This document shows positions 5,100 through 31,470 of a stretch of DNA of 64,000 nt, piece by piece (the first letter of the stretch is position 1; every line of letters begins with the position of its first letter). A model generated the notes under the pieces. That model did no database searches. It saw nothing but the letters and a program-made list of their open reading frames with translations, and had not been told where the DNA came from. The position numbers were made by a program, and so were the translations under genes. The DNA is from Xiphias gladius (lineage: Eukaryota > Chordata > Actinopteri > Istiophoriformes > Xiphiidae), in NCBI RefSeq assembly GCF_016859285.1, contig NC_053400.1, positions 14,998,546-15,062,545 of the forward strand, written 5' to 3'.

Positions 5100-5308
5100 G
5101 GTCAACTGATTTGTCCTCCCGTCCGGCGTCTCACCTACTTCGCCGGTGCTATCGCTTTAACTGGACGGGCGGTGACGCTGGGACGGGAACACGGAGCTGA
5201 GAGAGCGGGCTGCCGCAGCTGGACCGGGACCAGAACGACGACCAGCCTCCAGTCCTGTAGCCCACACGGTTATCTCTGCGAATCTGGTTCCCATTTTAAA
5301 AAGCCGCC
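5100..5308 (+). promoter_or_regulatory. xkr5: CpG-rich 5' region of xkr5
   Basis: Many CpGs (5118-5250) directly precede the start codon at 5309, which has a strong Kozak context (GCCGCCATGA). The transcription start is probably in this stretch; no TATA box is evident. Confidence 0.55.
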
Positions 5309-8300
5309 ATGAGAGACTACTCGGCGACTCCGAGCAACGGAGGCTCCTGCATGCCCTGCTGCCAAGTTTGCGTCTTCGTCTTTACCGCATTTCTCATCGT
5401 TGCAGAGAGGACGGCGCGTGAGTCCTACCTGGGACATCCACCCACTCACCCACCCACACACACACACACACACACAGACGCATTAAACCCGAGTGTTTTG
5501 TCACCAGCGGTGTGTTGGTTGACTGGCCGGGGTGATGGTATGTGCCCCTGCGCATCCCTGCTGTGTGTTATTTGACTTTATTGGCTTGTGCCTTTTTGGC
5601 CACAGTGTATAGATGCACAGTGTGTGAGGTCTACGGCAGCTGGGAGAGAGATGCTCCCATATTCTAGATGGGATCAGGGGGTTTCTGGGTGTCGTATCGG
5701 TCTGTTTTAAAATCTGCAATAATCCCACATTCAAAATGGGACATTTGTTTTTCGCTTCACAGGCTGTCTCCTGTTGTGTTATGAATAATAGAGTCAGACC
5801 AGAGTCTGCAGTCAGCACTAGTGCGCCTCTTCCCATTTTTATACCCCGCATGTTATGAAATCCTGCCTGCCGCAAAACTGCAGACTCATGCCAGAGGTTT
5901 ACATCTTTTAAACAGTTGCCATCCTTTCAGCCTCTGTGCGATCTTTCCCGAACAGAAACGAAGCGGGGCCATGTTGTCATATTCCAGCGCCCTTTTTTTT
6001 TCTTTCTTTCTTTTTTTTTTTTTTTTTTTGGAGGTGCACGAATGGACGAGGGGATGGGCGTACACCGGGATGGGGCCTAGTCTGCCGGGACAGCCCGCCT
6101 GTTTCGCAGCTAAAAGGGGGTTCAGGTTACATGTGTGGAGGGAGGGATGCAGAGCCTCGGGGAGTGTGGCGAGGAGAGTGAGTGAGGAGAAGAGGCATCG
6201 GTGGCCTTGTTGTCAGTAAACCTTAGATGTGATGGTCATCTGAAGAAGTGGAAACTCACAAAATACACAATCACTAATGCTCCTCTGATCAAATGCTTTA
6301 GTTTGCATCTGATGTAAACAAGTACTAAAATATAAACAGTACCACGGAAAATACTGCCAGTCTGTCATTTAGATCTGAAGTTGAAGTACACTGGGCTGGA
6401 GGAAGAATCTGTGCCCATCATTGAGGTAAAAGTAAAGATATCAGGATTTGAAAATATTCCATTACAAGTAAGGCTTGTATTCAAAATCTCACTTAATGAA
6501 AAGTATGTAACTCTTATCAGTCACAGGTACAGTACTATCAAAAGTAAAATTACTCATTAAGCAGCAGAACAGCTCCCATCAGTGTTATATTACCAGATGT
6601 TGCATTGTTTCATTATTATTACTGGTGTTTTAACATGTAAAGAGCATTTTAATGTCATCACTTGACAAATTGGAGCTTATTTTATCTATTTTCTACAGTA
6701 TACTGTTGTTTAGTTTAACCTGTATATGCATATTTTATAAAGTAATGATACAAATTTGTGTGTAAAATCCTAATCAGCAAAGTAACTAGTAACTAAAGTT
6801 GTCCAGTGGGTAGGAGTGGGTAGGAGAAGTAAAAAGTGCATTATAACTAAAGTTGTCCAGTGGGTAGGAGTGGGTAGGAGAGGTAAAAAGTGCATTATAT
6901 AGTATATTTCCCTCTGAAATGTGGTGGAGTAAAAGTATAAAGTAGCATCAAATGGAAATACTCAAGTGAAATACAACTATCTCAAAACTGTTCATAATTC
7001 ATTTCTTGATTAAATGTATTTAATTACATTTCAACATTGGATTAACCTCTCCATGTCGGTTTTTATGAGTTAGGTTTTATTACAATTTTTCAGTAGCATC
7101 ACAAGCAGGGTCAGACATCAAGAGCCAACGTTACAGCCCAATCAAAAATTGCATAAATGATTTATGATTGGCCTCATCGTGAATGTGCTTTGTACATGTG
7201 TGTGTGTTGCTGTCTTTCCCCAGTGATCTACTGCTTTGTATACTATCTGTGGGTGGGTCACAACTACTGCTATGCACATCTTGCCGGCTTCACTGCCCTC
7301 TTCCTGCTGCCAGGTGAGATCACATCAGTAACAACAACCCGATAGATCATTAGAAAGCTACAGCAGATAGATTGTTAGACAGGTTGATGTTCATTTTTAT
7401 CATTCGCTGTTTCCCAGGTTGGGGTCCTCAGTGGCTAAGTTACTTGTGGTACCTGTCAGATGGACGCATCCGCAGGAAGTCTCTCACCTGGACACACATA
7501 CTGCACCTGGGTATCTTCAAAAGGTGGGCCGAATTTATATATGTGTATGACGGAAATCTGTCAAGACAGTCATAAGGACCAGAAAAGCTATAATTGGTCA
7601 ATGATCAGTAATTCTCAAATCATGAGTAATGGTAATACTGGACTACCGGTTGAGTCTTAGAAACTATGAATTTGTTAATGTTTGGTGATGTATGATGATC
7701 TTGATTACGGCAACAAAATGTCCTCCCTTTCCTCTGTCCTCCTCCCGCCTCCCCTTCATCCATCTCCGGGCTTCACAGGCTGTGGGAGTGTATGCGTCTG
7801 CCAGATATGGATGTGTATGGTGAGATCATGCAGCAGGCAGACGTATCTGCCTTACGTCTGCTTGAGGCCTTGGTGGTCACCCTCCCTGAGACGGTGCTGC
7901 AGACCTATGTGCTCATCTGTACTGATATAGGGCTCAAATCTCCAGGTAAAGGGATAGACTGAATAGAGAATGTACAAAGTATCTGTACAATCATGATAAG
8001 GTCTGAAAGAGCACTTGTAAATTTGTGTGTGTGGTAGAGAAGAAGTTACCAAACATTTTAATGTAAACCACTCAAACAAATCTACAGTTAACTATGGCCC
8101 GATAGACGATGGCTGAGACCTGCATAACACAATGATAACAAAAATAGAGCAGCTACAATCTATATTTTTATTTATAAAATGATAATGAAATGAAACCTAC
8201 AGAGACTTGTCACCTGAATCTGCAGCTCCCATGGCTTTATGGCACTTTAGAGTGAGTTTCGGCTCATTGTTTAGCTGTCCGTCCGCAACTTTACTGTTTT

Positions 8301-9273
8301 GGTTCAGTCTCATCGCTCTTGTAAGTGTTATTTCCAGATTCATCGGGGCTCTTTCATTGGCAAAACTGTTCTGATAAACCCACTACACGGTAACTGCCCA
8401 GCACCAGACTGCATGTGTAACATGTTCACCATAACAACTTTATAAGGTCATAAATATGTCAGATGTTTTGTTTTCAGCTTGTTCTGCTGGCCCCAAAGTG
8501 GCCAAAAAATCAATTAGTGCAGCTTTAATTCTAACCGGTTTCTCTGCCATCTATTTCCAGTATACATCTGCAGCAGCCTTGTATCTAATGGACAGTATGT
8601 ATATAGCATTACAATGTACAAAGTATTCACCCTTCTTTTCCTCTCTGCCTTCTACCTCTTTTCTCTCCATCTCTCCCCTCCAGCCTCGGTGTGTTTTGTG
8701 GTGTGTTTGTTATCTCTCGCCTGGGCCTTGGTCCTCTACGCCAGAGCCTGTTCACTTATCAGACCAGGACACTTACAAATGACCCCCGCTGCCATTCTCT
8801 GTCGACTGCTGTGGAGGGTGGGCACATTTAAACTTCACACAATGAATATGTACCAAATGCACCCTCAATATACCAGTACCAGTATAATGAACAGCATATT
8901 TATAGGCCTGCTTTTGATTTGTGAGTGGGTTTTTTGGCTTGGTGTGTATGACAAGTAATGTATGTTTTTCTTTATCTGCAGGTCAGTATGCTGGGATCTC
9001 GATTTGCTGTTCTCATGCTCTTCACACGCATCTTCAAACAGTGGATCCTGGGAGTAATTGGCAAGTTGTATTTGCTGAATCTGGCAAACATTGGCAGGGT
9101 ATTGGCATGAGTGGTTTTGTTTGTCAACTGAACATATTATACTCTTGTTGGGCAAGTCTTGGTAAGGACACTCATAGTCCACCTCCTCTACGGTCAAGTT
9201 TACAGTAAACATCTGAATTAGTGTGTTTATGTATGCGTTAGAGGATGAATATTTATTAGGATGTGTGTGTGTG

Positions 9274-9366
<93 letters not shown>

Positions 9367-10792
9367 GTGCCAGGCGTGCACTGGCTGGGTGCAACTTTCT
9401 GGATGGTATCTCAGCAGACTGACATCATACGATCAACTAGTCGATGGAGACTGTTCAACCTCGTTCTGGGAGCCATTCACATCTTTCTCTTCCTCAACGT
9501 GAAGTACGGCCAATCCAGATACCGCATGGCTGGGTTCTACCTGGTATGTTTGGGTTTTTGATCAAGTCGAGCTTGTGTGAATTTGTCAATACATTCACAT
9601 CAAGCAATGGTACGGTTTCTTGTATTACTTATTTCTTCCGTCATAAAACAGAGACATATACAATAACAAATAACAAAAGAAAAATGATAGCTTCTGCTTA
9701 TGTTAGTGTCACTGATGTGGGCAAATCGCAGTAGAAATGAACCCTAAATATTTGGTTAATAATGGTTTTATTTGCAGGGGGATCTGACAAGAACAGAAAC
9801 ACTGCAACACACAGCTTTAAAATACAAACATGAAAATAAATTTGATGAAACAACTTATTCCCATTTATTATGGAGTAAAAAAAAATACATAGACTAATTG
9901 CTGAACTTCTTCAGAGACCAGCCCCTTCTGCAAATGAATCTGAGTGCAGCTCACCAACAGAGTCACCATTACAATTCTGATATTTGTACTGAAGAAACAG
10001 GTACCTACTTAATATGAGTAAGAATAATTGAATTTGGGGAAAATGTGAGTCTCATTAAAGGCATGTGCTAAGTATAAACCATCAGAAACACTGAAAATAC
10101 ATGTTTGCGATACTATAGTGAGCTTTGGATAAAGGTGTCCATCAGTTTTATCAGTGTAATCTCTAAGAAAATATTATAATATAACAATCAGTTATGAGCT
10201 GAATAAAAACTACATGACTTGAGTTGAGCGGACATATATAACAGCCAAATGTGAGACAAGAATGGGTTTCAGGTTTTGGAAGTGGTAACCATTTTCCTCT
10301 GTTTCTGCTTCTTCTTCAGGTCATGTTCGTAGAGAACGTCTTTCTTCTTCTGGCCTCCTCCTGGTTGTTTACCATGGTGTCCTGGGATACTGTTGGCATC
10401 CCAGCTGCAGTGTTCTGCAGCTTCCTCATTGGTTAGACACAGCCACAGCTACTGTATAAAAACTATATCCAAATGCATTCTCTGTCTAATCTTCCACACC
10501 TGTATTTTCATGTGGCGGCAGTGACATTTCCTTCTTTACTTTTGAGACTCACACACCTCCATCCCAAATTCTCCTCATTTCTGTCTCCTATTTACCTTTT
10601 CTTCTCTCTCCAGGAGTGATAGCGTTGGTGCTGTACTATCGTTTCCTCCACCCTAAATCCTTTGAGATTTTCCAGAGTATTCGCCACAGAGGGATAAGTG
10701 GAGCCTGCATGGAGCGTGGATCTACACTCACATTGGAGGAGAAAGTCACACCCACTTTCCATCGCCACGCAACTCTGTCTGGTCTGTTAAAA

Positions 10793-10877
<85 letters not shown>

Positions 10878-12796
10878 CCTATTTATCTATCTAATTTAAT
10901 TATGAATGTGGTTATTAATCTAATCAGGAGGTGGGACTCTCATGGACCTTCCAATCCAGTGGGAGGGCTGGAAACATCACCACTGGCTGCTGATTCGCTT
11001 GGCCCTGAAGACGGGGGATGTAGCGAAGATCTGGTCGGCGTATGGCGAGGGGGGACTGGCAGGACTGATGGGTCTGTCTGAAGAAGTTCACTCCCCAGAT
11101 GAACCTTATGTCCCTCGGGTATGTTTTGTTCCTGTTGTTGAAAATGTCCTGTGAATTTCATTACTATTAGTTTGAGCATGGAGATTGAATGTCTGCTTCT
11201 TAAACCAGTCCTCCCTATCACGCAGCCTAATTGTTATGTCTTTTAAGATTACGTAAAGGGGTTACTCATTCTTATTTGCGCTGTGATTTGTCAGGTTCCA
11301 CTTGTTCAACCACAGGTTCCTCAAATCTCATATCCAGCTCCTCAACCGGCTCAACCACAGGTGACCCAGGCTCCACAGGTAAGATCTTTGTTTATTGCTC
11401 ACTGAACCAATAATTTAAACTCAAAATACAGTGAATCAATGCTTAAAAGCCACTATGTGTAGGATTTGAAAATGGAGAGGAATGAACTGAAAGCAGCATA
11501 TAGACTACACAAAGTTTCAATGAGTTTGGCACATTTTTCTTTAAACAAAAACTAATGCCATAAGACTAGTTATAAAGAAAATGCTATTGTAACCACTTAA
11601 AAAATCAACAGAGTAGCGTTAAGATTCTTCTTCATGTGTAAAATGGATGTGAGAATGTGTTGCAGCCCAGTGAGGTCATGAGAAAAAAATAACAGCGGTC
11701 TCAGCCACAAGATTTGCTACTAAAAAGTCGTATATGTGCAGAATACGTAGGTTTTGTCTGTCTGCAGGCTGAGACTCAGCTGTATATCCTGTCCCCAGGT
11801 GAGAGAGGTGGTCCAGCCACCAAAGCCACCTCCCACCAGTATAGTGGCCCGACCAGTGAGAAAAGCTCCTCCCACAACAATCCATGATATGAGAAGGTTT
11901 CCAGAGGTTCTCCCGGTCCAGGAGGTCATTCCTGAGGAGAGTGCCGAGGAAGAGTCCAGTGCTCCACCATCAGAGGAAAAAGGTTGGACGCCTGATAAAC
12001 ACTGCACACTACTAACAGCAGTGCACACACTCAAGAGCGTACACTCAGTGACCACAGAAATAGTTCCCCAGTGGCTTCCTCTGTAGGAAACGTATGTATC
12101 GTTTTAAACACACTTTACCTTTAAATTCAATGTCATTTCATTTACAAAGGTGATGAGGAGTTTCAGAGTGCAGCTTACGGCTCACCCACACTTTCATCTC
12201 CACGGCAACCAGACAGCCTCCGCCACATTGACAGCAACGCTCCAACCCTGACCGAGGCCTCGTCCTCCGCAGGCTCCCTGGACATCAAGACTCCCGGCTG
12301 GTCGCCTGAGCGACGTTCCCCTCTCCTGATTGGTTCACCAGAGAGAAAAGCAGGGATTCCTGGAGAGTCCAGCACTACACTGTATTTCAGCGCAGATGCA
12401 CAGTCTCCCTCCAGTGGGAGCTATCTCGGCTGGGGCTCCGAGCTGTCTCCCATCTCCAGCTACCGAAGTCCCTACAGGATCAGGGAGGCTCGTTTTGTCA
12501 CATCCACCCCGCGACTGGAGCCTCGAGCTGGGGCTGAAAGTCCAGGCCCAGCCCCGGTTGTTGTGATCCCTGCCACTCCAGGTGAAACACCAGGCACCAC
12601 CCCTGACGGGACCCCTGTTGCTTCCACCACTGCTGTTTCTACGCCTGCTGCTTCAACACCTGCTGCTTCAAGCCCCGGCGCATCGACTGCTGGTGCTACT
12701 ACTCCGGGTTCTCCTGTCATTCCACTCACTCCAGTCGTCTCCCATGCTCGTAAACAGATCGTCCAGTTTGTGGACAGTAGAGAGAGGGCAGTGTAA
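5309..12796 (+). CDS. xkr5: XK-related protein 5, 13 coding exons
   Basis: Exons 5309-5417, 7224-7313, 7418-7523, 7779-7945, 8684-8817, 8982-9060, 9374-9543, 10320-10431, 10614-10781, 10928-11118, 11295-11378, 11799-11982 and 12150-12796 total 2241 nt, encoding 746 aa (human XKR5 is 686). Matches to XKR5 include ALRLLEAL..LPETVLQTYV (exon 4), HWLGATFWMVSQQTDIIRST and RWRLFNLVLGAI (exon 7), IALVLYYRFLHPKS (exon 9), HHHWLLIRLALKTGDVAKI (exon 10) and STTLYFSA in the tail. Exons 1-9 carry the hydrophobic XK-family core of 8-10 helices. Residues from about 440 are a cytosolic-type tail: a Pro/Gln segment (exon 11), a Pro/Glu-rich segment (exon 12) and a Ser/Thr/Pro/Ala repeat near 660-710. XK relatives such as XKR8 are lipid scramblases; activity of XKR5 is not established. 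Intron 6 starts with GC rather than GT, and exon 12 has an alternative. Confidence 0.93.
5455..5477 (+). repeat. (CA)n at the donor end of xkr5 intron 1
   Basis: A CCCA-rich then CA-repeat tract lies within 60 nt of the intron 1 donor (GTGAGT at 5418). The acceptor end of the same intron has a short GT run at about 7196-7208, the complementary sequence. Confidence 0.9.
6390..6990. mobile_element. Degenerate hAT-like non-autonomous element in xkr5 intron 1
   Basis: Phrases such as GAGGTAAAAGTA near the start and TGGAAATACTCAAGTGAAATAC near the end resemble the better-preserved element at 28718-29275 and a repeat I recall from percomorph genomes. No clear target-site duplication remains, so the ends are approximate. 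Confidence 0.45.
6791..6898. repeat. Tandem duplication, 2 x 54 bp
   Basis: Units 6791-6844 and 6845-6898 differ at one base (AGAAGT versus AGAGGT). Each unit holds an internal doubled GGGTAGGAGT motif. It lies inside the degenerate hAT-like element. Confidence 0.93.
9262..9369 (+). repeat. (GT)n microsatellite replacing the polypyrimidine tract of xkr5 intron 6
   Basis: GT repeats, interrupted once by TTTTT near 9274-9278, run to 9360 and continue as GCGTGTGTG up to CCAG, after which exon 7 starts at 9374. There is no pyrimidine run between the repeat and the acceptor AG. Confidence 0.95.
10794..10892 (+). repeat. (ATCT)n tetranucleotide repeat filling xkr5 intron 9
   Basis: About 24 ATCT units occupy roughly two thirds of a 146-nt intron (10782-10927). 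The remainder is the donor end and an AT-rich branch-point/acceptor region ending TTAATCTAATCAG. Confidence 0.95.
11768..11798 (+). other. xkr5: Candidate alternative 31-nt exon of xkr5
   Basis: A pyrimidine-rich acceptor (TTTTGTCTGTCTGCAG) opens a 31-nt segment encoding AETQLYILSP plus one base, closed by the strong donor CAG|GTGAGA. The segment enters in phase 0 after exon 11 and leaves in phase 1, exactly what exon 13 needs. The donor coincides with the acceptor of the 184-nt exon 12 (11799-11982), which has the same phases. Retaining both exons (215 nt) shifts the frame and reaches a TGA within exon 12. The segment is seen in sequence; its use is inference. Confidence 0.5.
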
Positions 12797-13018
12797 GGAG
12801 GGTGGGGGTGAAGAGGATGGAAAATCCTGGGTGGGGATGGTATCTTTTTCGGTTTAGTGTTTGAAGATATATCTGACTTCATGCTTTAATTAACCTGGGG
12901 AAGGCTTGGTGGGTAGTTATGGGCCTTTACAGTTCATTTGAATCAGTCATGGAAGAATATACACTACACATTTTTTTTTTTTTCCCCTGATGTTCAGATA
13001 CAGAGGTAAAAATTGCGG

Positions 13019-13445
13019 CATATTGGGATGCATGGGTGGCACACTGGCAAACCATTTGCAAACCTCTGTAGGAACTTCGATTCAGTTCTTACTAGAGGTA
13101 CCTCTGACTTCGCAGATCGTTCTAGCTCACATCTTTACCGGTGTGTGTGTGTGGGTGGTCAGCTGGTGAGAAATCATGTTGCTGCACTACCGGCTCCTGG
13201 TTGGTAGGAGCGGCTGCACGGAGAAGGGCTGTAGTATGTACCTCCTCACATGTGATGTCCCTTTGCAGGCAGGTGAAAAAAAAAGCATCTGGCAGACTCA
13301 TGTGTATCAGGGGGACACGTTGCTGTCTGCTTCCTATGCAGGCCATCAGAGCAGTTAACGGCATCAGACGCTGGTTTACAAGGGAATTGTCCATTCAAAA
13401 TTAGGGGAAAAAAGTGGGAGAAATTAGTTTTTCAGTTTAGTATAA
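13019..13445 (+). mobile_element. tRNA-derived SINE downstream of xkr5
   Basis: An A-box-like TGGCACACTGG (13037-13047) and a B-box-like ACTTCGATTC (13075-13084) are spaced as in a tRNA head. They are followed by a body I recognise from dispersed fish repeats (CACTACCGGCTCCTGGTTGG; GGCATCAGACGCTGG). No long open frame has a plausible product. It may lie inside the xkr5 3' UTR. Confidence 0.6.
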
Positions 13446-14549
13446 GCAGTCGCTGAAAAAAATTGACCGTGCGCTACAGATTAGTCATCACAGAAGATGA
13501 AATCTGGCTTAGCCCTCAAAAGAAAACACTCACAGGTGCTAATAAGTGGAGCATCGCTTTCATTCGTTTAGATAAACCCATATACTTAATTTTTAATCAC
13601 TAGAAACTAAACACAGAAAACCCAATGCAGCGAAGTCTCTGGCTTGTTCAGGAGGTACAGTCAGCCCAGGTTACCTCTGGTAAAATTCAAAAGCAAACAA
13701 ATTATTAAAATGATGGGGGGGCGTATTAGAATGACAAATTTTCTAAATGATCCAGGAAATTAAACCAGTTTACAATAAACAAACATGCTACCTACCAGGC
13801 TACTGTTCAGATTCTCTTGTAACGCCACTCGCCAAAACAAGTCTCTTTTTTAATTGGTGAGACTAGTCTGATACAATGAAGCCAATGATTTGTTATGACA
13901 TATAGAATCAATGTATACTTAATGAAAACTCAAGTATATATCTGAAAGTGGCTGAACATGCTGATCATTATTTTTTAGAAAAACCTTCAAATGATGTTGA
14001 GCATCTTGTCCAGTTTTCAGGCAGCCACTCGTTCATCCAGTCAGTCAGCTACTCACTGTATGTACAGTACACCACATGGTTGGTTATAACAGACATTACT
14101 GTCAGACACAAAGAGAAAGAGGTCCTAATTTACTTTCTGAAAAGTAGTAAGTTCTGTTCATGAATGTGTCTGTCATTGTTTTAATGAAACTATCAGATTA
14201 ACAAATGACAAAACGCAACGGTTTGAAGGAAAAACAGTTTATAAATTATGTGCGATGTTTTCCTTTGCTAAATAATCTGCAATCATGTCAGTCATTCAGC
14301 ACTTTACAGCAGAAAAAGTACAGCTCAAGTTTATTGTTAGCCACCAGACTGGCGTTAGCAGGATACACTACGATGATTAAATTCTGGTAGTTTATCAAAG
14401 GGAAATTAAGAAATATAGAATATGAAAGGACTATCGTCTGATGTTTCTATTATTATATGCATTTCATTTTCTTTTTCTAATGTTTTTTTAATTTGTTGAT
14501 TTGTTTTTGTCTTAATGTTCAGATATTTGTTTATTCATTTATAATATAT

Positions 14550-14550
14550 A

Positions 14551-14609
<59 letters not shown>
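14550..14609. repeat. Compound (TG)n(TA)n microsatellite
   Basis: TG units at about 14550-14568 run directly into TA units up to 14609. Confidence 0.95.
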
Positions 14610-14612
<3 letters not shown>

Positions 14613-17524
14613 ATACACAGTCATGCTTTCGCGACATGTGTAGCCCAAAAAATTACAAACAGGGGACAAAATGAAACTGGACATTTTTGAGGAAAAGAAA
14701 AGATACGGCACAATGAAAAGACCATTTCTGCAGGACATATTTAACTAATGAGTGTGTGTTCTTGTCTCTAACAGAGAGGATGTAGCTTTTATGACCAACT
14801 CTGACAATCACATTTTCTTTCTCTTTTTAATTGATGAAAGAAGGGAAGTATATGAATGATGATAAGATATAATGTGTGATACATGATAACGAAGTGCAGT
14901 AGCAGCAGTTGTCAGTGCTGCGTACTGATGATGTGAATTATAATGGCAACAGACCTGTATGTGCTGGGACAGAAGTTAAACTACCTTTGGTGTATTTCTG
15001 ACTAATCTATTTTCCCAAATTCTTGTGGTCCCAGAGTGCTTAAAACCTTTTTTTTTTTTTTTCAGTTTGCCACTCTACTTCACCACCCACTTATTGATTG
15101 GTAAAAGCTTTTACTATGTGTCTGCTCCCCTGGTTGTTAGCATTTAGCATTGTTTTGGCTAGTTGATATCCATTTACTCAAGTTGGTTTTACTGAAGAGC
15201 ACACAGCAAGCAAGCTGTTAGTGAAGCTTTAAGGCAAGAAACTATGTATTTGCCTTGTGAAGGACGTTAAAGATGTACTTGGGAAATACAGCGTCATCAA
15301 AAGTGACTATGTGCAAAAGTTACAACTGAAACCGGCTGCAATTTTAAATTAATAATGTCCATGCCTATTGATAGAGGAAAATGTAAGTATTCAGTTTTGT
15401 GTTAAACGAGACACCACTTTCACACATGTAGACAGTCCATCCACAGTAAACATTAAGCGCAAGACTGGTTTTTTCAACTTGTATTTGTTGTTCAGTTGTG
15501 CCCCTGCAGAGTGCTCTCATATTGCTCATGTAACAGTACACTCATGGATTACCTGGAAATGTCATTAACATTATTTCAAAAAGGACATACAGTAAACACT
15601 AAAATTAGTTTGCAAGCTAATGACCATTTATTGAAGGACCTGGGGAAATCTAAATCTAAATTTGATATAGTGTAGAAGGAATCGCTGTAGCTCTAAATGA
15701 CTTTGGTTTTCTCCTGTAAAGCCAACTATTCATAAATATTTGTCGTCCTTCAGTCTGTCCATCAGTTGAACCTCCTACCTCAGTGAAACTGAATGTCCAT
15801 TAGACAAAATCACTTTTTTATCACTGTTTTTTTTTTTTTTTGCCACAGTGAGAAAATATAATTGCTCGCTGTATGGCTGAACACGCTCTGAGCCTTTGTT
15901 TGACAGTATAAAACATTTTTTGATGATGTAGCTACCAGACGGAGGGAATCTGGGTAAGGGGCAGAGGTTTCAGAATAGAAATGCTGCATAAAGGTTATGT
16001 GCTGCTACAGGTTTCCAGTTTGGTCAGTACCAGTATTATGTCATGTTATAATTATTATCATTATTTATTTAAATATGTAAATTGTCATTTTAATCAGAGA
16101 ATATGGTGTTAACCAATATAAGTCTTCCCCTGTATATTTGTCTTGTTTTTCTTCAACTATGCTATTTTATTTTTCTTTATTTCTTTCTTTCTAAACAAAA
16201 TAATAACTATAAAGTAAGGTCTATATCTGTAAAAAAAGTGCAGAGGAAAACATGTTTTTGGCAGAACCGCTTTATCAAATTGTGTCAAACTGTTATCCAT
16301 GTACCGTGGCCTGCTGGTAGATAAAGGAGTCACTGCATGTTACTCATTCATACAGGCAGCAGAGTTGTGTGTATTCTCACGGAGAAAGAAAGCACTTACT
16401 GTAACTGCACACACAAGCACACATTACAGTAGTTAACATACATGCTAGGATGCATGTGTACGCTAAAGCAATAAGCCAGCTAATGAAATGTGTATTAGCG
16501 CACTGATGAAAAAATATCTACGCCCATGCTTTAGACTGCAGAGATGCCTTGGCTTGATCACTGTGAATCAGCGCTTTGCCTTGTAGAAAGACAGCTTGTC
16601 ACTTGTGTGTGTGTTGCTTTATATTAGTACGGTATACTTTGCTTTGTGTAGCTGGTGGGTATAATAATATTTGTTTGTGTTTCTAATTTGACTCATTTTA
16701 TATGTTATAATGTGTTTTTCTTCTTTCGTATTTGGTCACATTTACTGTTATGAGATGAGCCACGGTGCAGTATTTCAAGGTTTTGTGCTGAAGTTTCACA
16801 TGTGAAATTGTTTAGAGACAGGATAGTTTTCATTGACAGACTGGAGTTAGTTTGCGGACTGAGTGTACCATCACCTCATCCCTGGATGGCCTCCACTTGA
16901 CCAACGTGCATCACCTCATCTCTACGAGGATTTCCACAGAGCAACTGTGGCTGTTCGTAGTGAGTCATTAACTGTGCTATTGATGTGACAAAATAAAGTC
17001 ATTAATCGTGATCAAAGCCCAGAGTGGTGTGTTGGTCAGCCATCATTCATTTACCATCAGTGATGTTTCAATACCATTATGAGCTTTAGACACTGGTAGC
17101 ACTGTGAAGCTTAGTCCAAACCTTGTTAACGTTGTAATGTTTGTAAATAGAGAAAATAATCACAATGTAAATGATACAGTAATTAGCACATTGTAATTTG
17201 AGTATAAGCACAGCACAGTGGCCGCTCTAGTACACTGCTGCAGTGAAAATGCTGTGTTGTTTACATTATCACAGGGGCAGATTAACCTGCCAGGGGGGCC
17301 CAGGGCATTAACCACCATTCCTCCAACTCTTCTCTACATTGTCTACAGTAATTCTACACTGCCATACTATATGGCTTCGAGTTTGCTGTGCAGTTATGTT
17401 ATTAAGCACAAATTATTATAGGATTTGGAAACATTGGTGCAACATTAGCGGAAATAATAAAGTTCTTGAACTTTTATTTTGACACAGGGCGCATCTTCAA
17501 GAGAGGGCCTCAAGCTCTGGTAAT

Positions 17525-17575
17525 AAAGCACATATCTTCTTATGGCCCCAATCATGTAAGAAGATATTGTGCTTT
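17525..17575. other. Inverted repeat forming a short near-perfect hairpin
   Basis: The left arm 17525-17542 (18 nt) pairs with the right arm 17557-17575 (19 nt) with one single-base bulge. The loop is 14 nt (17543-17556). The flanks do not extend the stem much, so the foldback is shorter than most pre-miRNAs. It could be a small RNA precursor or the core of a foldback element. Confidence 0.7.
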
Positions 17576-19465
17576 AATTAACTCAATTCAAGCTTGTTTT
17601 TAATCCCTGCAAGAGCACCTGTATATGCAGTAGGTCAATAAACACACCCACAATAAATAGGAGAATAGAGAAAAACACTGTTATAACCATTACAACCATT
17701 TGTAGAATTAGTAATAAATACATTAATGAATAACTATACATATGCAAAGATATAAACAAAGTAGTGAGAAGTAGTGAGAACTGAGAAGATGTAGTAGTGC
17801 AGCAGAGTCGTGTGGTGTTTAATTTCAGTTTTTCAGAGCAAAGTTGTAATTAAAGACATTCCTACAAACCATTTGCCACCCAGTGAACCTGGGGTTTTTG
17901 GGGCCCTGGGGCAGGTTCAGGTCAACCATTCAGTACACTCTAACTCAGCCCCAGACTGTTGTTTACTGTTGTTGTTTGCTCTCAAAGATCATTAAATCTG
18001 TTGAGAAAAGCATGTGATCTTGGTCACTCTGTCAGGTTAAATAAGAAAAGTGGTTTTGGTCCTTCACACTCTACTTTAGAATGAGGATCTGCTCTTACGC
18101 AACTTACTTGTTGAAATAAGGATTAAAGTTGCTGCACTTACAGTATTTTTTTTCATTGTATCATTCTGAAAGTCAGATGACAGTCTCATAAAAAGAGGAG
18201 ATTCAGCATGTCCTGTGGTCAGTGATCCATAGCATGATACAGCCAAAAACACTTGTCACCATCCGTCCACAATCACAGGATACTTCTCAAAGGAATAAAA
18301 TGAGAAATGAAAGTCACAGATCAACTAAAATTCGTCAAATATCATCATACAACACGCACTGCGGTGCATGCGTTACTTAAAAAAAGTCGTCAGTATTCTG
18401 CTAAAGTCACTGAGAGCATTTATTTTATAGCTTAAAAGATAGTGTTTTTTAGCCCGTTAATGTAAAACAAGAAAACATTGGTTTCTTTGAAAGGATCCTT
18501 TTATTAGAATAACTAAATAAACGTCTATTTAGATACACCAGACTATCAAGGTATAGTGTACGTTTTCCTGCTCGAGGGTTCTATCTGGTCTGTTCAACTT
18601 TATGTCAAAAGACCTGCAATTTATTTTCTTGATTTTTAATGAGTAAAAAAAATTTAATTAGAATGGCCTTTTTTGGAAGTCTCTTAATCAGATACATAAC
18701 AAGTGCCCTTTGGGTTAGAGGTGTGTCAAGCTGTTTGAGAGACATAGCCAAGAACAAATATAAAGGACTTTGGACTGACAATAGCACATCATTCACGACT
18801 ACAATGTAATGATATGTTCTATCTTACTTAAAGGAAATCAGTGATCTTTGTTAAAACAGCAGTGAGCAACAGATGTGCAGATTTTGGGATTTGGGGCCAC
18901 TGCTGTCATGGATGGATGAGAGAATGAGCCCACCAGGAACCTCCGTCTGAAGTGTCTGTCATAATCATTCCTCATGGGCGAGTGAAAAGTGGAGATGTCT
19001 TCATCATGGTTTTTTGCTACAAATGCATATCCTTGAATGTTATATAGGGACATCACATCACATCAGAGGTCTAGTCCACCAATAACGAAAAAAACAGGTT
19101 AAGAAAGATGACAGTAATGAGAATAAAAAATAAAAAATGCATAAATGAGTAACACAAAATACAATGGGGGGGGATTTACGAACAAAACTAAAGATCAGAG
19201 TAACGATTATATTTCAGGGTGAAGTGGTGACATTAACCAGGGAGGGTGAGCCTCAGCACCAGCTAGCGGTCAGATTTGAGGCAGTGCCGATCCACCGCGT
19301 CCCGCTGCACAAAAACTGCCTCGTCGTGAAGTGCGTTTCTTCTCGGTTTCGTCCAGATGCCGATCCCTGTTCTCTTAGGAACAGGAGGACAGCCCCAGGC
19401 CGGAATAAGAAACTGATGGCATGTGGTGGTGGTGGTGGTGGTGGTGGTGAGGGGTTTCGCTGCGC

Positions 19466-19503
19466 GTCACGTGGGCTGCATTCATGTGACTGTCTCACGT
19501 GGT
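19466..19503 (+). promoter_or_regulatory. ctsb: MiT/TFE (CLEAR/M-box) site cluster in the ctsb promoter
   Basis: Three sites fall within 38 bp: GTCACGTG at 19466-19473, TCATGTGA at 19482-19489 and TCACGTG at 19495-19501. These fit the binding sequence of TFEB/TFE3/MITF, which switch on lysosomal genes; mammalian CTSB is a known member of that network. They lie just upstream of the presumed first exon of ctsb, in a GC-rich stretch. Confidence 0.65.
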
Positions 19504-19529
19504 TTCTGGGATAAATGATGCACACACCT

Positions 19530-19612
19530 TGTTTTCCAGTGACCGGCAGTTAGTTAAAAAGAGGAGTGGGTTAAACCAAGTTCACACCAACAGCCGACAA
19601 CAAAGGTTCCAA
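19530..19612 (+). other. ctsb: Probable non-coding first exon of ctsb
   Basis: The ctsb start codon at 23458 follows an acceptor (TCTTTCAG at 23445-23452), so an upstream 5' UTR exon must exist. The best candidate ends at 19612 before GTAAGTAT, downstream of the GC-rich, CACGTG-bearing promoter. The exact transcription start is not determinable from sequence. Confidence 0.5.
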
Positions 19613-22600
19613 GTAAGTATTTGATTTTATTTATTTATTTTTTATTTCGAAGTTGTTGTTGTTGTTGGTGGTGGTGTTTGGTTTCTCGACGTTAAAGCGG
19701 TCTCAGTTTGTTTAGGCCCCAGTTATCAGACGTTGGTTACAGATTTTTTTTTTTTTTTTTTTTTTTTTTAAGACGGTGAATTAGCACTTATCTACATCTG
19801 CCACACTTTGCATAAACCCGCAGAGACAACACGTTTAACGTCGTGTGCGGTTAGTATTTGAGGGCTTGCAGTCTACGTCTTCATCTTAACCCTTAACTGT
19901 TTTCATAAGTCAAACGGGGGTTGTTTTGTGACTGCCTGACGCATTTTAGCCTCATGGGTCAGAGGTGGGACAGTGTATCTCATTCATTAACAATTAGGAC
20001 TCACCCAAAATGATCAATGAAAGCTGATTCGAACTAAATACCTACAGTGAAAATGGATATGAAACATAATACGGAACAGTTTTAGCGCATAAAAACGGGG
20101 AAATGGAAAGTGAAAGTTGATTTTTATGAAACATTGAAGGCAGCCATTCTGCCCTCTGGTTTAACCAGACAAAAGAGAGGGGCTGAGACTTGTTATACCG
20201 ACTTATAAACCTGTCTGGAGGAGAGGGGAAGAAAACCTGAAGAAACTGACCTCGGTTAGTGTTTAAATGACAAGACCATGTACCCAACTACACCACAGTT
20301 GGCAGTCCAGAACTGCTCCCATCAGTGCAAAACAAAGGAGGGAAAAAAAACAAAACAAAAGAGTTTTCAGATTTGCAAGTACTCGGAAAACAGGCCTTTT
20401 TTTGATGGTTGTGTAAATGTGGCTGTGCCCCCCCCCCCGCTCACAGCACTGCGACAAGGAAAGAGGAAATAAGTCTTATCTATAAGTAGAGAGAACGAAC
20501 CCGACAGATTTGTGGTGTACAATTACAGACTTATCAGTTGTCGCCTTGTTGATTTTTGTGCAGGCGACATGAAAGATATTTGTGTGTCACTTTTCATATG
20601 TGAGCATATACAGATGGGAGATTCAGACCTGTAAAGTGTCTTTGCACTCTTTCCAGGTGTTTGTACTGGAGGCACAAAGAGGAACTGTAGAGCATGAGGA
20701 CTATATGCCTTATCCCACCTGTAGTATAGTATTTCTTTTTATATTTTAATTTTTTTTTTTTAAACATGATTCCTGTAGTTTGGACATCAAAACTTGACTT
20801 TAAAGCCTCTTCAGACAAACCTATCAACACTGATCATATGTTGTGTCATGTTTATAGCAGATGTTTAACAAAAAAAAACAAAAAAAATTATATATATATA
20901 CATACATACATACACACACACAGACGATAAAATAGCTGAGCAAAGTGTTTGAAGAAACAAGGTTTCCGCCAGCTGAAGTCAGCTCTTTGGGAGCTGACAT
21001 GTGAAGACATTAGTTCTACTTAGAAAGGAGTTGTCCAGGGACTTGAAGGTCTTCTCTCTGTGGCTTTGGCGCTGACTCACCTGTTTCTGACTTGATCTGA
21101 AACCTCCCAAACTGAGAAAATTCCACGACCCCTTGGATCTTTGAAGCTCTTTAAAAATCTGCTGGTTAAAATCATAAATAAATCATCATCAATCTAATAG
21201 CGGGGCTGATATTTCTTATCGGAAAACGTGACATTTTGGAGACGTAAAGGCACTGCCGGAGGAGGGCCTCACAGCCCTCCACTATGACTCAGCAAGTTAA
21301 CATAGCCTGTGTGAGTCTTTGTATGACAGCTGTGTTGAAAGTAATTGACATGAGACCGATGTCTTGAGGACAGACAGCAGTGCTGAACAGCAGGTGGATG
21401 GTTAAATTCCTCAAATCATGTCCTCATCATTGTTTCAGCCTACAAGGTGGATTTTTTTGGTTGAACCACTTCTCCAAAAACTGAACAAAGAAAACCATGG
21501 TGTCTTTCATACTTGTCCTTCTTGTGACCCTAATGTAATTTGTTAGTCAGGGTTTGTCCACTGTATTTTTTTTTTTTTGAGATTGCACACAGTTAATAGC
21601 TTGTACAGTTTATAGACAATTTATAGCCACAGAAGTCATATATACTGCATAAACAGCACATACACTCGAATAAAAAATGACCCCTTCACTCCAACAGCTG
21701 GAGAACTCGCTGAAGCCTGTCTCCAGCCAACTTGTAACCATAACCTAGTTGTTATAAATAAACTTCCAATGCCCAGCCAAAAAAGTCACAGCTGACCATT
21801 TTTATTAGATTACACAGAATATGATATATTATGGATTGTCTGTGGTATTAAAGACGGTTGAGCACTTACAAGAGCCTGCTTGAGATTTTGGAGATGTCAT
21901 GGTGGGTGATTGCAGTATGGCAAGTGGTACTTCAGTGGGATTTTAGAGATCAGATGTTTTTCTGTAAAGTGGAATTTTATGTTCTCACTTCCCTCTGTAT
22001 ACTTTTTTCCTCATGATATTCAATGGCCTCAGTCATGTGATATCGAACCGATGGAACTGGAGTTTTTATTTTCTCAGACAGAACTTCTTCTTCTCCTCTG
22101 CTTTGTTTCGGAATAGGAGCATGCCCAAACAGGTGTGCTGATTTTACAGGTGCCTAACAAGACTGGCTCTTGTTCTTAAGAAAATCCATATGATAGAGTG
22201 CAGATTGGCCAACATCATCATCCGTGGTCCCTCTATCAGGGTTGTCGGGGTTTGAAGTTGCGTGTTAGTTCTTCCCAGTGTGTTTATACAGAAGCATGGT
22301 GTCTGCACTGGTGTTGATTTTTTTTTTTTTTTTTTTTTTGCTGGACCTGGAGCACCCTGCTTATCTTGAGCACCCTCCATCCTTCAGAGTAACAGGCTGG
22401 AGTATGATGTCTAATGGAACTGATCTCAACTCTCACTGGTGCATCTCACCTCTGATAATGTGGTCTTTACTATGTATTGAATTGTGGGTGACATTTTTCT
22501 GCTATATGAGGAGCTAGTTTTCCTTGTGCTTTTTAAAACGGAGCTGAAACCCAGCCTTATTACAGTTAAGTGAACAAAACTGATCAAAAAGGTCTGATCA

Positions 22601-23444
22601 AAAGGAAATACACTACAAATTGTAATCCAGAAGTCTGTTTCTTGTGCTGGCGTGTAGATTTAAATCTAGTGAATTAGTTGAGCTCAGTGAACTGCTCATT
22701 GTACGTGTGCTGACGCAGTCTGTTCAACCACCTGAAGGGACTCTGACTAGCATGACTGAGGATAAGAGGGTTTTTTTCCTGCTCTGTGTTTTTTAAACTG
22801 TGTAGGCATGTTCCACTTGTATCTGTAACTGTGGTGACAATCTCTACTCAGCTGTGAACTTTATTGGTCTAGTTTCAGGAGTGTATATAAGAGGGGAAGA
22901 ACATGTGCTCAAGCATAACATTACATTTTCTCACGCTTGTATTGGCTAGAAATGTGAGTTTTTCTTTACAGTTGAGTTTAAGTCTGAATTTTCATAAAAT
23001 TCCCCACTTACTTACTTTGCTTACTTATAGAGATAGATTTATAGATAGATTTATAGATAGATAGATAGATAGATATAGTTATTTTTTTTTTTAAAGTATT
23101 TTCAGTACGCTTTCCACCCTAGAGTGTTGTATTTACAGTCTTTTGGGGTTAAGTACTGCACATTTTGTCTTGTAGCTTTCTTTTTGAGACATTGTAATCC
23201 CTTCAGCCTTCCAGCCTGAAAGCTGATGAAAATACTCATCTCGCCTGGAATTTTTAGTGGAGTCTGTGTTTGTTAGAAGTAGGGTTTGGTCATTCGTGAC
23301 CAGGTTTTGTGATTTTTATTTTTTTATTTTTATTTTTTTAATTAATTAAAAAAAAAAAAAAATCAGAATTAATGAAATTAAGTCACTATAGCTCATAGCT
23401 GGTGTAATGTGAATAACCGATTTTACTCATGTCTTCATTTTGGG
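19613..23444 (+). other. Putative first intron of ctsb, no other gene seen
   Basis: AT-rich sequence with a T29-type run near 19742-19769, a TA/CA tract at about 20887-20922, a T21 run at 22319-22339 and a TAGA microsatellite at about 23029-23075. Open frames here are short and have no family match. Confidence 0.45.
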
Positions 23445-23457
23445 TCTTTCAGGCAAA

Positions 23458-26400
23458 ATGTGGCACATAGCCCTCATGCTATTGGCTGCCAGCTCGTCGC
23501 TGAGCCTGGCCAGACCTCATCTCCAACCACTGTCCAATGAGATGGTCAACTACATCAATAAGATCAACACTACATGGAAGGTGAGTTTGTTTGTTTTTAT
23601 GCCTCCGCGCTGGCGACAAGTGGCCGGAGCATTATGTTTCCGAGTTGTCCTTATAATCCGTACATCCGAATGTCCCATTCTCATGAACACGATATCTCTG
23701 GGACACCGGGAGGGAAATTCTTCAAATTTGGCAGAAACATTCACTTGGACTCAAGGATGAACTAATTAGATTTTGGTGGTCAAAGTTCAAAGGTCACTGT
23801 GACCTCACAAAACACATTTTTGGCCATAACTCAAGAATTCATATGCTAAATATAATAAAATACACTTAGTATCTTTTTATTAAATTTTCGCTACATGTGT
23901 TATACCGTTCTGGACAGACATGGATGTAGAGTGCAACTTGACTGGTTGGCGAGGCGTATAACAGCAAGGTGGTAATTCTAATAATTCTTTTCTTTTTACC
24001 TCTGACTCCTCTCGTGGGTATAAGCAGTTCTATTTGACTAAATCTCCCTTCTCTCCTCCAGGCTGGTCACAACTTCCATAATGTTGACTACAGTTATGTC
24101 CAGAAACTCTGTGGTACGATGCTGAAGGGACCTAAACTGCCAATCATGTGAGTCTCATATATAAACAGTCTGTTGCTGAATGTGAAATACATAAGATCGA
24201 CTTAGGTTTCGTATTCCTTTCCACTCACATATCAGTGAGAGTTAGTATTTGCTGTGTTGTACACAGTGGTTGCAGTGTCACTGAGAAAGACATTGTAGTT
24301 GTATGTTTTACAGTAGTAGCACACAGTAATACTTAACTCTACAACGTTGTTTTCCTTTACACAGGGTTCAGTATGCCGGAGACCTGAAGCTGCCGAAAGA
24401 ATTTGACTCCAGAGAGCAGTGGCCCAACTGTCCCACTCTGAAGGAGATCAGAGACCAGGGCTCCTGTGGATCCTGTTGGGTGAGCAGAAAAAAAACAACG
24501 CATATGTACTTTAATTTTCATCCTACTGTTGAGTGTAAACTCACTTTATTGTCATTTATTCACATCTAGACTGCTTCCCTGTTAAGGGGTTATATTTCGT
24601 TTTGTGACATGTCTTGGTTCTTCTGCCCACAGGCGTTTGGTGCTGCAGAGGCTATCTCCGACCGTGTGTGTATCCACAGCAATAGCATGGTCAGTGTGGA
24701 GATATCCGCCGAGGATCTGCTGACCTGTTGTGACACCTGTGGCATGGGGTAAGGCACAGGGATCCGTGAACAGTTTCACTACTTTGTTGTGTTAAACTCT
24801 GACCTACTGTAGGAGGACCATAATCCAGATCTCAAAAGCAAAGTATACTGTTTGAAATGTGAATTATCTGTTTTTTGATGTGTAGAAAGAATGAACTTGC
24901 TCAATACAGGTTCACCAGTGAATCATCTGATATGTAGATGGAAGTCTTGACATTGTATAGGAATGGACCAATCCCATAAACAGGATTAGTATCTGTGTTA
25001 AAACTGATCTTATTAAGCAGCCTGTGTATCAGCCATGACATAACTAATCCATCTGAAATACAGTTTCTTTATCAATGTAATTTATAAAATTCAGTTTTAG
25101 TCATTAATTCACAAGGGGTCGTTGACACAATTTTTAGGGCAAGCGCAATCTCTAGGCTCAGTGTAACGTTAAATAAAAAGTGAGTTCCCCACAGAGGTAT
25201 AAAGATTTTACATTCGGGAAAAGAGAACACTATTAATGAATAGTAATATTATCATTGTGATGTTGTCATGCAGTAATGAGACTTACTGGGAGAGGAAAAC
25301 GTTGAATTGGTGCAGCCCTAATATTGTACAGTGTCCACATTTGGAAGTGGAAGCAGAGAGTGCTTATTGGTTGTCAGTTAAGGTGGAAAAAGTTGGAATT
25401 CATGGTTTTGTTTTTTATGTTCCACTCATTTTAGATGTAATGGTGGGTACCCCTCGTCTGCCTGGGACTTCTGGACCAAAGAGGGACTGGTCTCTGGAGG
25501 TCTCTTTGACTCCCACATCGGTGAGTTTTGTATCTTTGAGGCTCTTACAGTGGGAGACATGTATGTGTGGTGTCTACAACTCTGACTCCATCATTATGTC
25601 AACAGGTTGCCGGCCCTACACCATCCCCCCCTGTGAGCACCATGTGAATGGTACCAGACCTCCCTGCACTGGAGAGGGTGGAGACACACCGAAGTGCATC
25701 CTCAAGTGTGATCCTGGATACACGCCAAGCTACAAAGAGGACAAGCATTATGGTAAGAGAAGAAGAAGGAAAACATTTTGATCACCATAAATATGGGAGG
25801 CATGAGAGATTTTTAGGTTTAAGCATGCTAACATTAACCGTGTGCCTTTGCATACTCACCAGTATATACTCGATTAAAAGTAGAAATGAAATGTAACATT
25901 TAAACTGTATTTAGTTCCTGCCCTATGTTTTTGTTTTTTATTATATTATATTGTCGGTTGGTTGGTTGGTTGGTTGGACTGCTGGGATGTGATTCACTGT
26001 TGCTCTGAATCTGTTTATAAATGCAGTATGGGAAACAAAATGGTAAGTATTTGAATAGTAAACAGACTCAAAAGTATGATTTATTATCTTGAAATATGTA
26101 TGCATACATTCTTAAATGTTTTTGTAAAGTTCATTAGAAATTCAGGTTACTCATTGTATTAAGTTGTTATTACTAATAGTTGTTGTTGTTGTTGTTATAA
26201 TTAATTGTTGTTATTAATGATGATATGGTATTAGCAGTTACAGCATCATTAATCTATCACTAACTGGCATACATTTACACTGACTTGTCTCGCACATATA
26301 TAGTATTTATAAGATATTTGATAAAGAGAAACTGTTGTATTTCCTAACATGAGCCTAACCCTAATGATGGTGAACACACGCGCACACACACACACACACA

Positions 26401-31434: not shown

Positions 31435-31470
<36 letters not shown>

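What the first reader, a model, noticed from the sequence alone, without database searches (positions are those of the whole stretch)
11768..11982. xkr5: overlapping donor/acceptor makes a 31-nt exon and a 184-nt exon mutually exclusive
The sequence CCCCAG|GTGAGA at 11798/11799 is a good acceptor for exon 12 and a good donor for a 31-nt exon whose own acceptor ends at 11767. Both exons enter in phase 0 and leave in phase 1. Either one alone keeps the exon 13 frame (tail with AETQLYILSPG or with the 61-residue Pro/Glu segment); both together shift the frame to a nearby stop. Dual-specificity splice sites are known but rare. Here frame arithmetic would enforce the choice, and the retained form would give a truncated tail.
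Basis: partly seen in the sequence, partly recalled or inferred. Interest (0 to 1): 0.8.

Follow-up and report, generated by a model that had tools for sequence, protein, structure and literature searches.

The report
Two-way splice site in fish xkr5
In a fish gene for a membrane protein of the XKR5 type, one short stretch looks able to act either as the end of a tiny exon or as the start of a bigger one; the sequence allows such a switch, but it may simply be a by-product of how the intron sits there, and only RNA data can tell.

Summary
The 31-nt and 184-nt segments each keep the exon 13 frame; the undivided 215-nt exon stops at 11885-11887. Correction: that stop lies 95 nt before the last junction, so mRNA decay, not a truncated tail, is expected. 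No transcript or other fish genome was available, so use of the site is untested. For a 31-nt exon: its acceptor is rare in shuffled introns (0.9%), though less so in natural sequence, and its codons look coding, with a likelihood ratio of only about 3. Against: no well-placed branch point for its acceptor, while the 31 nt could be the branch/pyrimidine region of the 184-nt exon. New: a second xkr5 copy in the genome lacks introns 2, 5 and 9-12, so the site sits at a copy-specific intron. Best reading: the 184-nt exon is the main form and its start a latent, reconstituted 5' splice site; donor use is minor. Both are known kinds.

The parts
5309..12796 (+). xkr5 coding gene, 13 exons: 5309-5417, 7224-7313, 7418-7523, 7779-7945, 8684-8817, 8982-9060, 9374-9543, 10320-10431, 10614-10781, 10928-11118, 11295-11378, 11799-11982, 12150-12796 (746 aa)
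   Evidence: spliced frame open throughout; Pfam XK-related PF09815 E 2.8e-69 for exons 2-13; solved XKR4, XKR8, XK-related and XK chains E 3.6e-27 to 3.9e-7 for exons 2-10. Exon 1 assigned by phase, donor and start context, not by homology search
11295..11378 (+). exon 11, 84 nt, phase 0 to 0, Pro/Gln/Val-rich, ends CCACAG|GTAAGA
11379..11798 (+). intron 11, 420 nt, absent from the second xkr5 copy; carries an old dispersed repeat
11768..11798 (+). 31-nt segment: candidate exon (AETQLYILSP + G) or branch point/polypyrimidine region of intron 11
   Evidence: acceptor 9.7, donor 11.4; open and codon-like in phase 0; CTCAG and CTGAG branch-like motifs inside it 19 and 25 nt from the 11798 AG
11797..11804 (+). 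AG|GTGAGA dual-capable splice site (cut at 11798/11799)
   Evidence: acceptor 10.8, donor 11.4
11799..11982 (+). exon 12, 184 nt, phase 0 to 1, 61 residues rich in Pro/Glu; weak donor AAG|GTTGGA
   Evidence: coding score 29.1 bits in frame; reached by 0 of 12123 183-mers from the xkr5 introns and 13200-22500
11885..11887 (+). stop codon read only if 11768-11982 is one 215-nt exon
12150..12796 (+). exon 13, last coding exon; GDEEFQS start and SSTTLYFSADAQSPSS motif similar in the second copy

Best explanation
Exon 12 (11799-11982) is the main coding exon, joined from the 11798 acceptor. The 31 nt before it mainly serve as branch point and polypyrimidine tract of intron 11. Exon 12 begins GTGAGA, so the site is physically dual-capable, and after exon 11 is joined to exon 12 it leaves a strong reconstituted 5' splice site (CAG|GTGAGA), as in exons called RS-exons. 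Exon 12's own donor and the next acceptor are weak, so this start would compete unless it is silenced, most likely by the exon junction complex laid down on exon 11. Donor use before splicing would give the 31-nt isoform at a low or conditional level; donor use after splicing would skip exon 12. A possible reason why AG|GT is there: intron 11 is one of six introns present in this xkr5 copy and absent from the other, and in this copy these six tend to lie at G|GT junctions, as expected if introns were gained at AG|GT sites. Shown: sequence, frames, site scores, absence of the introns in the second copy. Inferred: isoform levels, silencing, origin and direction of the intron change.
For: Exon 12 is strongly coding in the required frame (29.1, -11.2, 6.0 bits for the three frames; reached by 0 of 12123 183-mers from the xkr5 introns and 13200-22500). 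The 11798 acceptor scores higher than 11767 (10.8 v 9.7) and has branch-like motifs at 19 nt (no AG between) and 25 nt (one AG between), whereas the only one found for 11767 is 43 nt away with 3 AGs between. The mRNA junction 11/12 has the highest 5' splice-site score of the 12 junctions of this gene (11.4; next 7.0), well above exon 12's own donor (4.2). The exon junction complex is reported to repress such junctions in hundreds of annotated mammalian exons (PMC6224609, abstract start and passages). Second copy: 51% identity over 412 alignment columns, introns 2, 5, 9-12 absent. In the window copy the downstream exon begins GT in 5 of 6 copy-specific introns v 1 of 6 shared ones (Fisher 0.08; junction scores p = 0.065). 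Donor and acceptor flanks of intron 11 resemble each other (TCCNCAG|GTNAGA) as well as only 3 of 272 mismatched donor-acceptor pairs do. Intron gains in ray-finned fish genes are documented (PMC12357937, abstract start, passages and Discussion).
Against: No RNA evidence. The 31-nt segment looks better than a mere polypyrimidine tract: its acceptor is rare in shuffles (0.9%) and its phase-0 codons rank in the top 2.1% (table trained on the second copy) or top 0.06% (trained on this gene) of 1695 GC-matched open 30-mers that follow an AG. The AG-free stretch before 11798 is the shortest of 17 introns examined (17 nt), both its branch-like motifs lack the final pyrimidine, and the branch test is weak: 3 of the 16 other introns show no such motif scoring 3 or more. 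The tail of the second copy does not favour exon 12 over the 31-nt form (45.4 v 43.9 bits). The G|GT enrichment is not significant at 0.05, and in the second copy itself 3 of its 5 introns, all shared, are also followed by GT, though with low junction scores. The other five copy-specific introns show no special flank similarity (41 to 184 of 272 pairs as good). The direction of intron change rests on recall that human XKR5 has 7 exons.
Confidence: 0.5

Rival explanations
1. A true dual-specificity switch: U1 on 11798 defines a 31-nt exon (isoform tail ...QAETQLYILSPGDEEF...), U2AF on the same AG defines exon 12, and both isoforms are made at useful levels.
For: Three strong sites in the right order, matching phases, codon-like 31 nt; a phase-compatible open arrangement this strong within 300 nt arises in 0.2% of shuffled introns and at 17 of 612 putative acceptors of the window (7 of 612 within 60 nt). 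In human, AGGT sites act both ways 3.1-fold more often than expected (PMC10809524, section 6).
Against: The 31-nt exon's acceptor has no well-placed branch point; very short exons are poorly recognised (general knowledge), and the exon junction complex is reported to repress 5' splice sites just downstream of junctions, microexons included (PMC6224609). Sites seen used both ways are underrepresented among annotated sites and tend to have weaker, not stronger, scores (PMC10809524). The second copy has no such segment.
Confidence: 0.25
2. Alternative 3' splice site: acceptor 11767 is used with donor 11982 to make a 215-nt exon with an early stop, so the pair of acceptors tunes expression through nonsense-mediated decay.
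For: Acceptor 11767 is strong; the stop at 11885-11887 lies 95 nt before the junction.
Against: The branch point for 11767 is poor; it leaves the strong donor at 11798 unused inside the exon.
Confidence: 0.12
3. Recursive skipping: exon 11 is first joined to exon 12, then the rebuilt CAG|GTGAGA is spliced to 12150, so exon 12 is skipped without using acceptor 11767; the tail is frameshifted and ends at 12249-12251.
For: Junction score 11.4 v 4.2 for exon 12's own donor; this is the geometry of RS-exons (PMC6224609); recursive splicing also occurs in short and medium introns (PMC10156609, abstract and passages).
Against: Skipping breaks the frame; the exon junction complex normally blocks this.
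Confidence: 0.08
4. The 31-nt exon is the constitutive form and the 184-nt segment is not normally an exon.
For: Stronger donor at 11798 than at 11982; gapless LS..EFQS match of isoform A to the second copy.
Against: Exon 12 is strongly coding in frame and the second copy's similarity extends into it, although by only 1.5 bits.
Confidence: 0.05

Closest known systems
Dual-specificity (dual-specific) splice sites (Zhang et al. 2007, seen only as a citation; Duan et al. 2024, PMC10809524, abstract and sections 3 and 6)
   Same: AG|GT core scoring as acceptor and donor; the two uses exclude each other
   Different: there, use both ways is shown by reads; here only predicted. Their sites tend to be weaker than single-use ones; this one is strong on both sides
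Annotated RS-exons (Blazquez et al. 2018, PMC6224609, passages)
   Same: exon start rebuilds a strong 5' splice site at the exon-exon junction, competing with a weaker exon donor
   Different: here an upstream acceptor also lets the same site end a separate 31-nt exon
Zero-length / pseudo-exon of rat alpha-tropomyosin (Grellscheid and Smith 2006; seen only as a mention and citation in PMC5126111)
   Same: one AG|GT used as acceptor and then as donor
   Different: there an apparent pseudo-exon leading to decay; here the acceptor starts a coding exon
Intron gain at AGGT (tandem duplication model; passages of PMC4974935) and intron gain in ray-finned fish slc26a1/a2 (PMC12357937)
   Same: introns present in one gene copy only, three of the six here at AG|GT junctions (introns 2, 11, 12)
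   Different: direction of change not established here; no duplicated segment beyond TCCNCAG|GTNAGA

Membership tests
dual-specificity splice site | sequence fits both donor and acceptor | tested here: met
   acceptor 10.8, donor 11.4
dual-specificity splice site | reads show use as both 5' and 3' splice site | not testable with these tools
   no RNA data
RS-exon (putative, sequence definition) | last 3 nt of the preceding exon + first 6 nt of the exon form a 5' splice site above the level of most real donors | tested here: met
   CAG|GTGAGA 11.4, equal to this gene's strongest real donor; matrix score, not the MaxEntScan threshold of the paper
RS-exon | skipping rises when the exon junction complex is depleted | not testable with these tools
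   none
mutually exclusive exon pair | each alone keeps the frame, both together break it | tested here: met
mutually exclusive exon pair | both isoforms exist | not testable with these tools
   none
XKR5 (XK-related family) | XK-related domain | tested here: met
   PF09815 E 2.8e-69, 234 bits against a cut-off of 24.8
XKR5 (XK-related family) | orthology to XKR5 rather than another XKR | not tested
   no tree built; best solved-structure match is XKR4, but no XKR5 chain is among the four matches; the XKR5 name rests on the recalled human sequence
intron gained by AGGT tandem duplication | donor and acceptor flanks are copies of one segment | tested here: inconclusive
   intron 11 flank similarity reached by 3 of 272 mismatched pairs, but confined to about 13 nt and not shared by the other five copy-specific introns; no support for the 31 nt as a copy of exon 11 (111 of 1000 shuffles as good)

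The most novel reading that the evidence does not exclude
In one fish xkr5 copy, introns gained at AG|GT sites left a strong two-way splice site that is now used as a switch between a 10-residue and a 61-residue tail segment, with the frame destroying any molecule that fails to choose: a direct link from intron gain to a mutually exclusive exon pair with no intron between its members.
Probability: 0.1. Interest if true: 0.65.

Novelty: new member of a known kind. Interest (0 to 1): 0.33.

Why it matters
If both junctions are used, it would be a clean natural case in which one AG|GT is shared by two coding exons and the reading frame enforces the choice. If, as seems likelier, only exon 12 is used, the site is still a good test of how strong reconstituted 5' splice sites are kept silent. 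The pair of xkr5 copies, one with six extra introns, is a useful comparison for intron gain or loss in fish.

Tried and rejected
Repeat-derived acceptor: intron 11 contains a dispersed repeat (a 25-mer at 11451-11475 has 28 hits, its own place included, with up to 3 mismatches in the own genome v 0 for the reversed pattern), but its conserved core covers about 11445-11475, with weaker similarity (67-69%) reaching at most 11634 in 4 of the 20 copies fetched; the 11767 acceptor and the 31 nt lie outside it. A full-length search of intron 11 found only itself, but that search skips common words.

31 nt as a decayed copy of exon 11 or another exon: not supported. Ten comparisons; the best, to exon 13, is reached by 31 of 1000 shuffles (31-nt query) and 25 of 1000 (60-nt query), not notable among ten.

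The undivided 215-nt exon in the exon 12 frame: the frame is open upstream, but no donor of exon 10 or 11 that I saw gives the phase needed (by inspection).

The coding signal of the 31 nt first looked overwhelming (0 of 28087 open letter permutations); against natural sequence and with cross-training it fell to the top 2% with a likelihood ratio of about 3. The softer figure is used.

Second-copy tail as proof of exon 12: rejected, because isoform A scores almost the same.

Genome-wide counts of dual motifs could not be obtained: the machine was busy (one pattern; another). No tRNA or Rfam family was found in the window.

They weaken the rarity and intron-gain arguments, so the probability of the novel case was lowered from 0.12 to 0.10; other odds stand.

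Full report
The gene. The + strand of 5309-12796 encodes an XK-related protein in 13 exons (746 aa, frame open throughout). Exons 2-13 match Pfam XK-related (E 2.8e-69), and exons 2-10 match solved XKR4, XKR8, XK-related and XK chains (4 chains). The name xkr5 fits the recalled human sequence but was not tested with a tree.

The observation. Every coordinate, length and phase in the finding is right. 11768-11798 (31 nt) or 11799-11982 (184 nt) alone keeps exon 13 in frame; the two as one 215-nt exon stop at 11885-11887; neither gives a frameshift that stops at 12249-12251 in the last exon. The stop of the 215-nt form is 95 nt before the exon 12/13 junction, so decay of that mRNA is expected rather than a stable short protein.

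Strength of the sites. With recalled weight matrices, acceptor 11767 scores 9.7, acceptor 11798 scores 10.8 and donor 11798 scores 11.4, all in the top 1.1% of their kind in the window. Exon 12's own donor (AAG|GTTGGA, 4.2) and the exon 13 acceptor (4.2) are weak. Of 495 AGGT in the window, both strands, 2 reach both scores of the site: 11798 itself and 7313, the donor of exon 2.

Chance. In shuffled versions of intron 11 with its ends kept (3000 per threshold), 0.9% hold an acceptor of at least 9.6 within 300 nt upstream and 0.2% a phase-compatible open one; with a threshold of 8.0 these rise to 6.3% and 1.5%, with 6.0 to 33% and 9.6%. Natural sequence gives more: of 612 putative acceptors of the window (score at least 6; + strand outside 5300-12800, and the - strand), 106 have an acceptor of at least 9.69 within 300 nt upstream and 17 a phase-compatible open one; within 60 nt 23 and 7. 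Among the 16 other introns of the two xkr5 copies, none has an upstream acceptor of at least 9.7 within 300 nt of the real one (11767 itself, 9.692, just misses that cut), and 3 have one of at least 8.0. So the arrangement is uncommon, roughly 0.2 to 3% given the intron, and a vertebrate genome has very many introns.

Is the 31-nt segment coding? In phase 0 its ten codons score 5.3 bits with a codon table trained on the second xkr5 copy; 2.1% of 1695 GC-matched open 30-mers that follow an AG do as well, and 5.6% of 737 real ten-codon windows do. With a table trained on this gene it scores 8.5 bits, reached by 0.06% of the same 1695 and by 0 of 592 real windows of the second copy. This favours coding by a factor of about three, not more. 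Exon 12 is clearly coding in its frame (29.1 bits, reached by 0 of 12123 183-mers from the xkr5 introns and 13200-22500).

Branch points. For acceptor 11798 there are branch-like motifs CTCAG (19 nt, no AG between) and CTGAG (25 nt, one AG between), both inside the 31-nt segment; for 11767 the only TNA motif found from 15 to 49 nt is at 43 nt with 3 AGs in between. The AG-free stretch is 17 nt for 11798 and 15 nt for 11767, against 21 to 180 nt in the other 16 introns examined. This favours the 31 nt as the 3' end of intron 11 and disfavours it as an exon, but neither acceptor is textbook, and 3 of the 16 other introns show no motif scoring 3 or more, so the test is weak.

A second copy. The same genome holds another xkr5 copy at G000:C4:10032004-10035743, 51% identical over 412 alignment columns. 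Six of its exons were found; its first exon was not looked for. It lacks introns 2, 5, 9, 10, 11 and 12 of the window gene; its whole tail is one exon. The dual site therefore sits at an intron found in this copy only. In the window copy the next exon starts with GT after five of these six introns, against one of six shared introns (Fisher 0.08; junction scores p = 0.065); but in the second copy 3 of its 5 introns, all shared, are also followed by GT, with low junction scores. The donor and acceptor flanks of intron 11 match each other as well as only 3 of 272 mismatched donor-acceptor pairs do; the other five copy-specific introns are unremarkable (41 to 184 of 272). Human XKR5 has 7 exons as I recall, which would make these gains; five introns gained in slc26a1 of Eurypterygii are a precedent (PMC12357937, Discussion). 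Gain at, or by duplication of, an AG|GT site (model described in passages of PMC4974935) would explain an acceptor followed by GTGAGA. It is suggestive only.

What the second copy does not settle. Its tail aligns to isoform B with 45.4 bits and to isoform A with 43.9 bits, so it does not choose between them. It has no counterpart of the 31 nt, because it has no intron 11.

How it most likely works. Exon 12 is spliced from 11798 in most transcripts. That joint rebuilds CAG|GTGAGA, a 5' splice site stronger than exon 12's own donor. Such joints are reported to be held silent by the exon junction complex in mammals, and 1.7-4.9% of human exons qualify by sequence (PMC6224609, passages). Use of 11798 as a donor, before or after that joint, is possible but probably minor. 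In human, 0.713% of annotated 3' splice sites are seen used both ways (PMC10809524, section 6). I put 0.5 on this reading, 0.25 on a real switch, 0.12 on a decay-coupled alternative acceptor, 0.08 on recursive skipping and 0.05 on the 31-nt exon as the main form.

Limits. No RNA data, no other fish genome, no MaxEntScan or SpliceAI; two collection scans for relatives returned none. A search of the paper library for 'xkr5' found 40 papers and listed 30; no title or abstract start in that list concerned its splicing, and the one XKR5 paper opened had no passage on XKR5 isoforms under the terms isoform and splice (PMC6004359, passages).

Noticed in passing
window introns 2, 5, 9, 10, 11, 12 v L024 3005-6744: The second xkr5 copy on C4 lacks six of the twelve introns of the window copy; intron gains here or losses there.
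   Followed up: partly
window 9061-9066: Intron 6 has a GC donor (TTG|GCAAGT), phase-consistent; the second copy has an ordinary GT there.
   Followed up: no
window 11445-11634: Old dispersed repeat in intron 11; its 25-mer core has 28 hits in the genome (own place included) against 0 for the control.
   Followed up: yes
window 7313-7314: Donor of exon 2 also scores as a strong acceptor, the only other AGGT in the window as strong both ways as 11798.
   Followed up: no
window 11297-11317 and 11342-11362: Exon 11 holds two similar 21-nt units 45 nt apart, each with CCACAG|GT, the same string that ends the exon; repeated Pro-Gln-Val codons create AG|GT sites.
   Followed up: partly
window 12614-12671: 15-nt tandem repeat (3.9 copies) in the coding part of exon 13, Ser/Thr/Pro/Ala-rich.
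   Followed up: no
window 31115-37091: ADP-dependent glucokinase-type gene (Pfam ADP_PFK_GK at 31115-31429 and 36510-37091), with a Tc-type transposase fragment at 33149-33526 between them.
   Followed up: no
window 23413-25778: Probable cathepsin B-like gene (C1 propeptide match below the curated cut-off; name from inspection).
   Followed up: no
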